This document shows, piece by piece, positions 10,604 through 17,903 of a stretch of DNA of 44,759 bases; position 1 is the first letter of the stretch, and the number at the start of each line of letters is the position of its first letter. The translations under genes were made by a program, and so were the position numbers. The notes under the pieces were generated by a model. That model was given only the letters and a program-made list of their open reading frames with translations, was not told the DNA's origin and ran no database searches. Source of the DNA: an uncultured Monoglobus sp. GTDB lineage: Bacteria; Bacillota; Clostridia; Monoglobales; Monoglobaceae. The DNA is taken from contig CANQMT010000022.1 in the NCBI GenBank assembly GCA_947625055.1, positions 1-44,759 of the forward strand. Direction: 5' to 3'.

Positions 10604-10682
10604 TTCGTTTCATTTCCAAAATGATTATACCACAGCCCGCCAAATTTTTCAATTCCTAATGAGACCTTGCAAAGCTGAAAAG
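10604..10682 (-). repeat. Promoter-carrying dispersed repeat, copy A
   Basis: On the minus strand this copy reads AGCTTTGCAAGG, then GGAATTGAAAAATTTGGCGG, then GTGGTATAATCATTTT. It holds a TTGAAA (10652-10647) and TATAAT (10629-10624) promoter with a 17-base spacer. Related copies lie at 12760-12836 and 15052-15130. Here the upstream part of the repeat also encodes the last residues and the stop of the P-loop gene. Confidence 0.7.
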
Positions 10683-12759: not shown

Positions 12760-12836
12760 CTCCGCTTTATTTTAAAATGATTATATCGCAAATCGTCGGC
12801 TTTTTCAATTCCTCGAAAGAACTCGCAAAGCTGAAT
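12760..12836 (-). repeat. Promoter-carrying dispersed repeat, copy B
   Basis: The minus strand reads AGCTTTGCGAG, GAGGAATTGAAAAAG and GATATAATCATTTT. TTGAAA (12808-12803) and TATAAT (12785-12780) have a 17-base spacer. The spacer itself is diverged from copies A and C, while the promoter boxes and flanks are kept, suggesting selection on the promoter. It drives the methyltransferase gene. Confidence 0.65.
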
Positions 12837-12891
12837 CTTGCGAGATAAGACATAACCAAGGCCAACCACTCTGCGGCAAAACATTATTGCG

Positions 12892-13459
12892 GTTTAACTC
12901 ACACGCCTCTTGCGAGGCGTGACATGATCGTGTTGTACGGATACGGGTACAGCTCTTTGTTTCAACTCACGCGCCTCTTACGAGACGTGACATATTAAAA
13001 TAAACTCATGAGAAGGTGTCTTGCGTTTCAACTCACACACCTCTGCGAGGCGTGACTGGTTTCCCTGTTGTATTGTTCAGCTTGAAAGCGGTTTCAACTC
13101 ACACGCCTCTTGCGAGGCGTGACTTGATCACGGTCTTGTTGCTGTTGTACCGTCTCAAGTTTCAACTCACACGCCTCTTGCGAGGCGTGACTTTCTGCCA
13201 CTCTTGCTGTGGCTTGGCAATTGCCGTTTCAACTCACACGCCTCTTGCGAGGCGTGACTTATAACTCATTATTTTTCCTCACTTTCTTCTTAAGTTTCAA
13301 CTCACACGCCTCTTGCGAGGCGTGACAATTGCCGAGATATTCGTCTTCAGCGTCGCTGTCGTTTCAACTCACACGCCTCTTGCGAGGCGTGACTGAAGCG
13401 CGACAGATACAGCAGGGGGCGGACGGGTTTCAACTCACACGCCTCTTGCGAGGCGTGAC
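12892..13459 (-). CRISPR. CRISPR array, 9 repeats, type I-C-like, no adjacent cas genes
   Basis: Nine repeats of 32-33 bases start at 12892, 12959, 13025, 13091, 13159, 13226, 13294, 13361 and 13427. They are separated by eight unique spacers of 33-35 bases. The plus-strand repeat begins GTTTCAACTCACACGCC and ends GGCGTGAC. Read on the minus strand it forms an 8-bp stem CACGCCTC/GAGGCGTG with a GCAA loop and ends GAGTTGAAAC, like type I-C repeats. The six repeats at the high-coordinate end are identical, whereas the three at 12892, 12959 and 13025 have decayed. The leader is therefore at 13460 onward and transcription should run on the minus strand. Confidence 0.95.
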
Positions 13460-13723
13460 TCTATATATTGTATAATATACTGATATTGCCTCACAATTCG
13501 GCGGACTTCTTTAAAATTTTAACATACTTTTATTGATAAATCAAATATTTTTCCGGCGAACCTTATCGGATTTCATTATTACTCAAGGTTCGCCGTGTGC
13601 TATATAATCAATGCGCCTTTCCCGATTAGCCTACTTTCGCAGCATTACTCCGGTATTCAGAAGCGAAAATCGGCATGATATTATATTGCTATCTCTCAAA
13701 GTGGAGTTCTGTTGTTACGCATA
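13460..13723. other. CRISPR leader and intergenic region
   Basis: The first 40-100 bases next to the array are AT-rich and hold a TATTATACAAT-like box on the minus strand, consistent with a leader and promoter. A perfect 11-bp dyad, CGGCGAACCTT (13554-13564) and AAGGTTCGCCG (13585-13595), follows. It has no clear T-tract and may be a terminator or a boundary. No gene is visible. Confidence 0.5.
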
Positions 13724-15051: not shown

Positions 15052-15130
15052 TTCACTTAATTACAAAATCATTATACCACAACCCGCCAAATTTTTCAAT
15101 CCCTCGCGGAAGACCTCGCAAGGCTGAAAA
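15052..15130 (-). repeat. Promoter-carrying dispersed repeat, copy C
   Basis: Minus strand: AGCCTTGCGAGG, GAGGGATTGAAAAATTTGG and GTGGTATAATGATTTT. TTGAAA (15099-15094) and TATAAT (15076-15071) have a 17-base spacer. It is close to copy A and drives the GNAT-MBL unit. Confidence 0.7.
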
Positions 15131-15817: not shown

Positions 15818-16330
15818 TTAATCTATTGCATTCTTTACCGTCTGATAATCCCAATAATATTTTCCGTCTCTATAGTAACACATTGCTGCATGCGTTCCTA
15901 TATTCTTTATGATATTAGGACATTTAGATTTATCAACAGTTATGGCGTTATATAAAACAACAATTTTTAAATTATCGCGTACTGCTTTCTCACATTCGTA
16001 TTCAATATAACTTCGATAATCAACGTTGTGTCCACGACCGCATTTATATGTATAACCATTATAGCTATTACAATATTGACAACTTCCACTACGCACAGTT
16101 TTCGTATTATCCCCAACAATTAAGATAAAAGTTTTAGAAACATCTAATCTCTTACTTAATGAGGCTTTAATACTACAATTTAAACTACTATCACGAGCTT
16201 GTACTATATCGTGTGCATCAGTAAAAGAAAGGCTCCAATAATTACTGTCATTCCATTTATGTAGTTGTTCTATAGCATTATAATCGCCTGACCAATCTGC
16301 CGCAATATATGTTTTTGTTCTGTATGTCAT
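15818..16330 (-). CDS. thsB: TIR-like protein, ThsB of a type II Thoeris system
   Basis: The 170-residue protein resembles TIR-like/DUF1863 ThsB proteins. It begins TYIAADWSGDYNAIEQLHKW, then SFTDAHDIVQARDSSLNCSI (residues 35-54), then the hydrophobic strand TFILIVG (67-73). An acidic helix YIEYECEKAV (Glu110, 112, 114) probably supplies the catalytic Glu. Between them lies a Cys/His cluster, Cys84, Cys87, Cys97 and His101, that could bind zinc. Known ThsB enzymes convert NAD+ into an ADP-ribose signal on phage infection. The ATG at 16330 has AAAGGAG eight bases upstream, favoured over GTG 16339. It is last in the operon, 16 bases after the S24 gene; it is markedly AT-rich. Confidence 0.85.
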   Translation of the reverse strand: MTYRTKTYIAADWSGDYNAIEQLHKWNDSNYWSLSFTDAHDIVQARDSSLNCSIKASLSKRLDVSKTFILIVGDNTKTVRSGSCQYCNSYNGYTYKCGRGHNVDYRSYIEYECEKAVRDNLKIVVLYNAITVDKSKCPNIIKNIGTHAAMCYYRDGKYYWDYQTVKNAID

Positions 16331-16346
16331 ATAAAACACTCCTTTA

Positions 16347-16796
16347 TTATAAATCCCCCAATTTTTTTATTGCTATACCCAAGATGTCACAATTATCAAC
16401 GACTATGTCATTATAATTTGAATTCTCAGGTTGTAATTTATACTTATTGATCCCATCTAATCTAAAAAAACGTTTTAATGTAACTTCGTCATTAATCATT
16501 ACTGCAACAATATCTCCATTTTCAGCAGTAGGCTGCCGTTGAATAACAATTAAATCTCCATCATATATATCTGCATTAATCATTGAATCACCACTCGCCC
16601 GTAAAACAAAATAATCACCACTTCCAATCATAGTCTTTGGAATTTCAATATACCCATCTATATTATCATTTATGGACTTAAGATGACCACAAGAAATATT
16701 ACCATATATAGGTAAAATAGTTCTACTGCCATTCAAACTATATTGCTGCCATGTTGCATCGTGGTAATATATTTTTTTACTATGTATAATATCCAT
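16347..16796 (-). CDS. S24 LexA/UmuD-type self-cleaving peptidase without DNA-binding domain
   Basis: The 149-residue protein is an almost complete S24 peptidase domain. The predicted autocleavage site is Cys36-Gly37 (as Cys24-Gly25 in UmuD), the nucleophile Ser71 is in ASGDSM, and Lys108 is in VTLKRFF. The spacings, 35 from scissile residue to Ser and 37 from Ser to Lys, equal those of LexA. Only 35 residues precede the cleavage site, too few for the helix-turn-helix of LexA or phage repressors. A GGAGGT ribosome binding site fixes the start. It lies 37 bases after thsA and 16 before thsB, so it belongs to the same operon. No umuC or other SOS gene is near. Confidence 0.9.
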   Translation of the reverse strand: MDIIHSKKIYYHDATWQQYSLNGSRTILPIYGNISCGHLKSINDNIDGYIEIPKTMIGSGDYFVLRASGDSMINADIYDGDLIVIQRQPTAENGDIVAVMINDEVTLKRFFRLDGINKYKLQPENSNYNDIVVDNCDILGIAIKKLGDL

Positions 16797-16833
16797 ATTA
16801 ACACCTCCGGTATCACTAAAAGTTTTATAAAAG

Positions 16834-17649
16834 CTATGCCAAATTGAAGAAGTTTATTTTATTAACACTATCTCCATATATAACAATATTAATATTGGTA
16901 CCTTTTTTTAAAGTTAGTCCACTTAATTTAAAAGATATAATTAGTATTTCAAGTAATTCTTGTTCGGATAAATTCAATCCATGAAATCGAGTTATACCGG
17001 TTCCTAACAATGGTAGATTAATGGAATATCCAGAGTATAATATATCTATTTCATTCCACATATTTAATAAGCATTTGATAATATCACGTTTATTTAAATA
17101 TGCTCTATTCTCTTCATCAAACATTGAAAAAGCTAATAAAAGGTATTCTCCATTTTTATATATGGTTCCTAAAGGATACTTTACCTTTTTACCGTATTCT
17201 CTTTTATTATCAACAATTGTGTGCAATTTTCTTAGTCGTTTGTCATTACTAATTTTTCTGTTTAATTCATTTACATCGTCAATATAATTTAGTATATATT
17301 GACCATGTAGTGTATTTGAAGAAATCACTACATCATCTACCACTGTATCAAAATATTCATTAAATGGGATCACTTTCAAGTCAGGTTGTTTAAAAATATC
17401 ACCTTCAATGATATTTATTCTTGTATTATTAATCTTTAATGTTGCTGATTTACATCTATTTGCCATAACCCACATTGATAAATATACAATAATTAATAGC
17501 AGTATAAAAACTATAAATCCCCAAATCCTAACTTTACAATTGTCAGGTAAATCATAAAATATCTGTACAAGCGAAGCGATTGAACTCAATATACCAACAG
17601 TAGCACCATACAATTTTAGCAATTTACGATTAAATAAAGAAACCTTCAT
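16834..17649 (-). CDS. thsA: Two-TM macro-domain protein, ThsA of a type II Thoeris system
   Basis: The 271-residue protein has two transmembrane segments (about 13-32 and 43-63), then a macro domain of the ThsA/DUF6430 type. Macro landmarks are GDI at 83-85, the NEYFDTVVDD and SSNTLHGQY region (97-118), YPLGT (158-162) and PLLGTG (213-218). In type II Thoeris, ThsA binds the TIR-made ADP-ribose signal through the macro domain and its membrane helices cause cell death. It is first in a three-gene operon under the promoter at 17716-17744, with AAGGATG before the ATG. Its base composition is far more AT-rich than flanking chromosomal genes, pointing to horizontal transfer. Confidence 0.87.
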   Translation of the reverse strand: MKVSLFNRKLLKLYGATVGILSSIASLVQIFYDLPDNCKVRIWGFIVFILLLIIVYLSMWVMANRCKSATLKINNTRINIIEGDIFKQPDLKVIPFNEYFDTVVDDVVISSNTLHGQYILNYIDDVNELNRKISNDKRLRKLHTIVDNKREYGKKVKYPLGTIYKNGEYLLLAFSMFDEENRAYLNKRDIIKCLLNMWNEIDILYSGYSINLPLLGTGITRFHGLNLSEQELLEILIISFKLSGLTLKKGTNINIVIYGDSVNKINFFNLA

Positions 17650-17903
17650 GTAATCTCATCCTTCTTTCTATGCATAAAATTATATTTGCGAAGATATGTG
17701 AAAAAGACAATATTTATTATACTATAAAAAGTTTATTATTTCAAGTATATTTATGAAAATTTTGTGTATTTATTCTGTGATGTCAATAGATGTTACCCAT
17801 TCTTTTGAAAAAAGAAAAATATTCGGTATGGTATCGCCCTTGCAGGACTTCATAGTTAAAGCCCGTAGGGCTGAGGCGAGGATGTCCTGCAAGCGCGCTG
17901 AGC
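17650..17903. other. Upstream region of the Thoeris operon and old element end
   Basis: It contains the operon promoter and, further up, sequence that seems to belong to a decayed insertion element, including a 10-bp inverted repeat CTTGCAGGAC (17839-17848) and GTCCTGCAAG (17884-17893). No coding region is visible. Confidence 0.5.
17716..17744 (-). promoter_or_regulatory. Promoter of the Thoeris-like operon
   Basis: Minus-strand TTGAAA (17744-17739) and TATAAT (17721-17716) have a 17-base spacer, near consensus, about 65 bases ahead of thsA. No LexA-box-like dyad is seen around it. Confidence 0.75.

What the first reader, a model, noticed from the sequence alone, without database searches (positions are those of the whole stretch)
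15818..17649. Type II Thoeris-like operon with an inserted LexA/UmuD-type peptidase
In sequence: a promoter drives TM-TM-macro (ThsA-like), a stand-alone S24 peptidase, and a TIR-like protein (ThsB-like), with gaps of 37 and 16 bases. Known: type II Thoeris pairs TIR sensors making an ADP-ribose signal with macro-domain membrane effectors. I do not know of a described Thoeris with an S24 peptidase between the two. Inference: the peptidase could link the system to DNA damage, by cleaving itself on RecA filaments and releasing or activating a partner, or act as an inhibitor destroyed on infection. The genes are much more AT-rich than their surroundings.
Basis: partly seen in the sequence, partly recalled or inferred. 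Interest (0 to 1): 0.92.

Follow-up and report, generated by a model that had tools for sequence, protein, structure and literature searches.

The report
Thoeris operon carrying a LexA-like protease
This is a genuine two-gene bacterial anti-virus system (type II Thoeris) with an extra gene, a LexA-type self-cutting protease that has lost its DNA-binding half, lodged between its two genes; none of about 50 comparable systems has it there, so it looks like a rare local addition rather than a standard part.

Summary
On the minus strand lie thsA (TM-macro, 17649-16834), an S24 peptidase gene (16796-16347) and thsB (TIR, 16330-15818). The gaps are 37 and 16 nt, each gene has its own ribosome-binding site, and third-codon G+C is the same in all three (0.19-0.21, against 0.42-0.46 in neighbours).

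ThsA and ThsB are ordinary type II Thoeris proteins. The S24 protein is a LexA-type C-terminal domain without a helix-turn-helix. Ser71, Lys108 and a candidate Cys36-Gly37 cleavage site are intact. It groups with accessory LexA-like repressors that keep their HTH.

In 50 other loci with thsA upstream of thsB, none has S24 between them: 46 have no room and 4 hold a second TIR gene. In a 96%-identical sister locus, homology starts at the thsB ribosome-binding site and the DNA upstream is not S24. The host has RecA but no detectable LexA, and no SOS box precedes thsA.

Best reading: a normal type II Thoeris whose operon captured, in this lineage, an HTH-less, probably cleavable S24 accessory gene. 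A DNA-damage gate on Thoeris is possible but untested. No described Thoeris with an S24 gene was found.

The parts
17716..17744 (-). candidate promoter TTGAAA-17-TATAAT of the operon
   Evidence: consensus scan, 11 of 12; not experimental
16834..17649 (-). thsA, TM-macro effector, 271 aa
   Evidence: PF20016 1.2e-53, PADLOC ThsA 5.9e-89, solved ThsA macro domains 8v6q 6e-48, two hydrophobic segments
16347..16796 (-). stand-alone S24 peptidase (LexA/UmuD C-terminal-domain type), 149 aa, no HTH; Ser71/Lys108 dyad, Cys36-Gly37 candidate cleavage site
   Evidence: PF00717 3.3e-29; LexA 3k2z 7e-21 and UmuD 8gmt 5e-12; residues and reading frames; AlphaFold model and Foldseek
15818..16330 (-). thsB, TIR-like sensor, 170 aa (ATG at 16330)
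   Evidence: PADLOC ThsB 5.8e-93, PF08937 1.4e-8, start supported by relatives
16331..16346 (-). S24-thsB junction with the thsB ribosome-binding site AAGGAG; homology to sister locus L047 begins here
   Evidence: blastn of L047 against the window: alignment starts at AAGGAGTGTTTTATATG

Best explanation
A complete, ordinary type II Thoeris operon (TIR ThsB makes a histidine-ADP-ribose-type signal on infection; membrane TM-macro ThsA binds it and stops the infected cell) that in this lineage has captured an extra gene. The extra gene encodes the C-terminal protease half of an accessory LexA-like repressor that has lost its DNA-binding half. Shown: the gene identities, the intact dyad and cleavage site, the missing HTH, the operon layout, and the absence of this gene from related Thoeris loci. 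Inferred: Thoeris works without it. Its most likely activity is what such domains do elsewhere: it dimerises with itself or with other S24-type repressors and self-cleaves at Cys36-Gly37 on RecA-ssDNA filaments. Because it cannot bind DNA, it would act as an optional modulator (a damage-cleaved binding partner, or a poison of prophage S24 repressors), not as an essential Thoeris component or SOS repressor.
For: ThsA and ThsB match their families end to end. Across 50 other loci with thsA upstream of thsB, 46 have at most ~160 nt between them and 4 have a second TIR there; none has S24. Sister locus L047: thsB and 1 kb downstream are 96% identical, but homology stops at the thsB ribosome-binding site and the preceding 87 nt are not S24. 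S24 falls, with 100/97 support, among accessory LexA-like proteins of 201-212 aa with HTH, some beside a Y-family polymerase. Dyad and cleavage site intact, in-frame upstream sequence has no HTH. RecA present, no LexA DNA-binding domain above cut-off. Same GC3 in all three genes.
Against: Matched composition, tight spacing, a strong ribosome-binding site and intact catalytic residues are what a selected, co-acquired component would also show. The closest sister contig ends 101 nt upstream of thsB, so its complete operon is unseen. Only one copy of the arrangement is known, so purifying selection cannot be measured. Sampling is one genome per species plus viral contigs; 0 of 50 still allows a frequency of about 6%.
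Confidence: 0.6

Rival explanations
1. DNA-damage gate on Thoeris: S24 binds ThsA or ThsB and holds it inactive, or activates it; RecA filaments formed during infection trigger self-cleavage at Cys36-Gly37 and release or arm the partner.
For: Shared operon, same composition and a position that elsewhere holds a second TIR sensor; intact dyad and cleavage site; RecA encoded; other defence systems, including type IV Thoeris with CapK/CapS, are controlled by DNA damage (PMC13373217).
Against: No conservation in any other Thoeris locus found and absent next to thsB in a 96%-identical sister. No HTH. The known damage regulators sit upstream and bind DNA. No interaction evidence.
Confidence: 0.17
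2. Poison subunit: S24 pairs through its C-terminal domain with S24-type repressors of prophages or incoming temperate phages and disturbs their repression.
For: Dimerisation is a property of this domain (general knowledge of LexA/CI/UmuD); the best structural matches are LexA, lambda CI and phage repressors; the host carries an XRE-S24 phage-type repressor next to phage-like genes.
Against: Sequence identity to the resident repressor is low (35% over a 51-residue stretch); no direct evidence.
Confidence: 0.2
3. Orphan UmuD-like subunit that serves the host Y-family polymerase and only hitch-hikes in the operon.
For: Size and layout are UmuD-like (149 aa, no HTH, Cys-Gly cleavage site); some nearest relatives sit beside a Y-family polymerase; the host has one such polymerase on another contig.
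Against: No polymerase gene nearby; scores 67 bits against the 110-bit UmuD cut-off; its relatives are LexA-like rather than UmuD.
Confidence: 0.12
4. Functionless remnant of a LexA-like gene, kept by chance.
For: HTH lost, long branch (1.75 changes per site), found in one lineage only.
Against: Open frame of normal length for the domain, all catalytic residues intact, own ribosome-binding site.
Confidence: 0.25

Closest known systems
Type II Thoeris (TM-macro ThsA + TIR ThsB; structures 8v6q/8v6s/8v6t, PMC11204291)
   Same: Both core proteins, their order and, apart from the extra gene, their layout
   Different: A 450-bp S24 gene separates thsA from thsB; elsewhere they are adjacent or separated by a second TIR gene
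Accessory LexA-like repressors of Clostridia with an SCG/ACG cleavage motif (L018-L031 here)
   Same: S24 domain 42-48% identical, Ser-Lys dyad, Cys-Gly cleavage motif; same clade in the tree
   Different: They have an N-terminal HTH and 201-212 aa frames; this one has 149 aa and no HTH
UmuD of DNA polymerase V
   Same: HTH-less S24 protein with a short N-terminal arm ending at a Cys-Gly cleavage site
   Different: No UmuC partner gene nearby; below the UmuD model cut-off; sequence closer to LexA
CapH/CapP, CapW/BrxR, CapK/CapS regulators of defence operons (PMC13373217)
   Same: Possible functional parallel: DNA-damage signal next to a defence operon, in CapH/CapP through a protease
   Different: Those are upstream, DNA-binding transcription regulators with other folds; here there is no DNA-binding protein and no S24 among them

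Membership tests
Type II Thoeris | TM-macro ThsA effector | tested here: met
   PF20016 1.2e-53, PADLOC ThsA 5.9e-89, two N-terminal hydrophobic segments
Type II Thoeris | TIR-like ThsB encoded with it on the same strand | tested here: met
   PADLOC ThsB 5.8e-93; same strand, 503 nt after thsA
Type II Thoeris | Active-site glutamate (and tyrosine) of TM-macro-type ThsB | tested here: inconclusive
   Glu112 and Tyr111 invariant in the five-sequence clade alignment, but they were not superposed on EcThsB2; the PDB match covers only residues 1-82
Type II Thoeris | Phage protection through an ADP-ribose signal | not testable with these tools
   needs a bench assay
S24 self-cleaving peptidases (MEROPS S24) | S24 fold with Ser-Lys dyad | tested here: met
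   PF00717 3.3e-29; Ser71, Lys108; Foldseek to LexA E=2e-9
S24 self-cleaving peptidases (MEROPS S24) | Ala/Cys-Gly cleavage site ahead of the domain | tested here: met
   Cys36-Gly37 aligned with the SCG/ACG motif of relatives; cleavage itself not tested; the loop has low pLDDT
LexA | N-terminal winged-HTH DNA-binding domain | tested here: not met
   26 residues before the domain, no HTH, upstream frame overlaps the end of thsA; LexA model 101.7 bits, below its 110.95 cut-off
UmuD | Linked umuC polymerase gene / UmuD model score | tested here: not met
   no polymerase in the window ORFs, host polymerase on another contig; 67 of 110 bits
DNA-damage transcription regulators of defence operons (CapW, CapH/CapP, CapK/CapS) | DNA-binding repressor upstream of the operon | tested here: not met
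   no HTH in the S24 protein; it lies inside the operon; no LexA-type palindrome upstream of thsA
Standard Thoeris component | Present in related Thoeris loci | tested here: not met
   0 of 50 loci with scorable thsA-thsB order; 0 between the genes in further viral, plasmid and phage loci

The most novel reading that the evidence does not exclude
A RecA-responsive, self-cleaving S24 protein that does not bind DNA gates a TIR-based immune system by protein contact, in a bacterium without LexA: a new way of coupling DNA damage to abortive infection.
Probability: 0.13. Interest if true: 0.75.

Novelty: new variant of a known kind. Interest (0 to 1): 0.36.

Why it matters
If S24 works with Thoeris, it would be a post-translational DNA-damage switch on a TIR immune system, unlike the known upstream transcription regulators. 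If it does not, the locus still shows that the slot between thsA and thsB, elsewhere filled by extra TIR sensors, can take up unrelated genes, and it corrects the expectation of a conserved three-gene system.

Tried and rejected
S24 as a conserved Thoeris part: rejected for the sampled loci. S24 as SOS repressor of the operon: rejected, no HTH, no LexA palindrome upstream of thsA, no LexA in the genome. Split or frameshifted LexA with an HTH upstream: rejected, the upstream frame is short and overlaps the thsA end. Close S24 relatives in viral contigs: none confirmed. ThsA in the sister genome's bin: none found, uninformative because the bin may be incomplete or the contig misbinned. PF20016 across 398 genomes of the phylum added only two genomes. 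L051 and L129 have S24 genes 3-4 kb from thsA, not between the genes. The sister's upstream frame ending GRRIKLIHSIF might be another ThsA C-terminus; left open. Literature searches for Thoeris with S24/LexA or UmuD returned nothing. RNA families: none.

Full report
Observation. The thsB start is the ATG at 16330, since relatives align from that residue. Gaps are 37 and 16 nt. Each gene has a plausible ribosome-binding site (GGAGG before S24, AAGGAG before thsB, AAGGA before thsA). A TTGAAA-17-TATAAT site lies upstream of thsA. The three genes have the same third-position G+C (0.188, 0.200, 0.205), far from the two genes downstream (0.42, 0.46). They therefore share a compositional history: S24 is not a recently inserted gene of native composition.

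Identity of thsA and thsB. ThsA matches Pfam ThsA_Macro (1e-53), PADLOC ThsA (6e-89) and solved ThsA macro domains (8v6q, 6e-48); it has two hydrophobic N-terminal segments. ThsB matches PADLOC ThsB over its whole length (6e-93) and Pfam ThsB_TIR. This is the TM-macro Thoeris described in PMC11204291, called type II in PMC12360287, where the signal is given as histidine-ADP-ribose.

Identity of the S24 gene. The protein is a LexA-type S24 domain (3k2z LexA 7e-21, UmuD 5e-12) with Ser71, Lys108 and a Cys36-Gly37 motif. An AlphaFold model (pLDDT 79) shows the S24 beta fold from about residue 42, a disordered start and a poorly resolved cleavage loop; Foldseek finds LexA, lambda CI and UmuD. There is no helix-turn-helix: the frame upstream of its ATG has only 19 codons and overlaps the end of thsA. 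Its closest relatives in 391 genomes of the class are LexA-like proteins of 201-212 aa with an HTH. In a tree it joins the SCG/ACG-motif group of these (100/97), on a long branch. Two of the relatives examined lie next to a Y-family polymerase gene. It is best described as the C-terminal half of an accessory LexA-like repressor.

Comparison with other Thoeris loci. A scan of genome contigs with a ThsB alignment gave 58 loci, with more from genome and viral searches. Counting loci once, 50 outside the window have thsA upstream of thsB on the same strand. In 46 the gap is at most about 160 nt. In four (L068, L073, L074, L092) the space holds another TIR gene. None holds S24, by tblastn or by an S24 HMM built from 30 sequences. 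A ThsA-alignment scan of viral contigs (21 loci, some overlapping earlier ones) also has none between the genes. Three plasmid records and one phage record show no S24 by annotation or by HMM.

The sister locus. L047 (a rabbit-gut MAG contig) matches the window at 96% from the thsB ribosome-binding site through thsB and a further half kilobase, and then at about 80% over the GNAT-MBL genes. Upstream of that site the sequence is unrelated to S24. The contig ends 101 nt upstream of the thsB start, so what replaces S24 is unknown. In genome G011 of the same genus, the same GNAT-MBL neighbourhood carries an AbiEi/AbiEii pair, and L047 carries methyltransferase and Vsr-like genes downstream. The site is a variable defence spot.

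Host background. The genome encodes RecA and one Y-family polymerase, but no LexA DNA-binding domain above cut-off. Its only other S24 hits are an XRE-S24 phage-type repressor and two signal-peptidase-like proteins. The listed same-genus genomes had no strong match to the S24 protein, whereas 308 of 391 genomes of the class did. An SOS explanation through LexA is therefore unavailable, though RecA-stimulated self-cleavage remains possible. A LexA-type palindrome was not found upstream of thsA.

Mechanism. Shown: the gene content, the intact catalytic residues, the missing HTH and the absence from relatives. Inferred: Thoeris functions without S24; S24 can dimerise and self-cleave; its effect, if any, is through protein contacts. 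The DNA-damage gate has precedent only in kind (CapH/CapP, CapW, CapK/CapS; PMC13373217); all of those act through DNA-binding repressors. S24-type regulation in LexA-less bacteria is also known in other settings (PMC7273328, PMC13148647; abstracts).

Verdict. The claim of a new three-component Thoeris is unsupported in every locus that could be compared, though one locus cannot exclude a lineage-specific function. It rates as a new variant of a known kind with moderate interest.

Noticed in passing
window 12884-13477: CRISPR-like array of about 9 repeats (GTTTCAACTCACACGCCTCTTGCGAGGCGTGAC, spacing 66-68 nt) with no evident cas gene in the neighbouring ORFs; a longer copy lies at the same place in sister genome G007 (L112).
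   Followed up: partly
window 10618-10679, 12774-12835, 15065-15126: A 62-nt repeat sits just upstream of three minus-strand genes and contains a promoter-like TTGAAA...TATAAT on that strand: a repeated promoter-like element.
   Followed up: no
window 15818-16330 and alignment A1: The ThsB clade has an invariant Cys84-x2-Cys87-x9-Cys97 insertion in the TIR-like domain, perhaps a metal-binding knuckle.
   Followed up: no
L068, L073, L074, L092: In these loci the space between thsA and the clade thsB holds a second TIR gene, so this position is a site of accessory sensors.
   Followed up: partly
whole genome G000 and same-genus genomes: The genome has no detectable LexA although RecA is present, and the listed same-genus genomes show no strong LexA-type S24 match: apparent loss of the SOS repressor.
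   Followed up: partly
L113:10686-12225 and L047:2810-5609: The GNAT-MBL neighbourhood next to the Thoeris operon carries AbiEi/AbiEii in one relative and methyltransferase/Vsr-like genes in another: a variable defence hotspot.
   Followed up: partly
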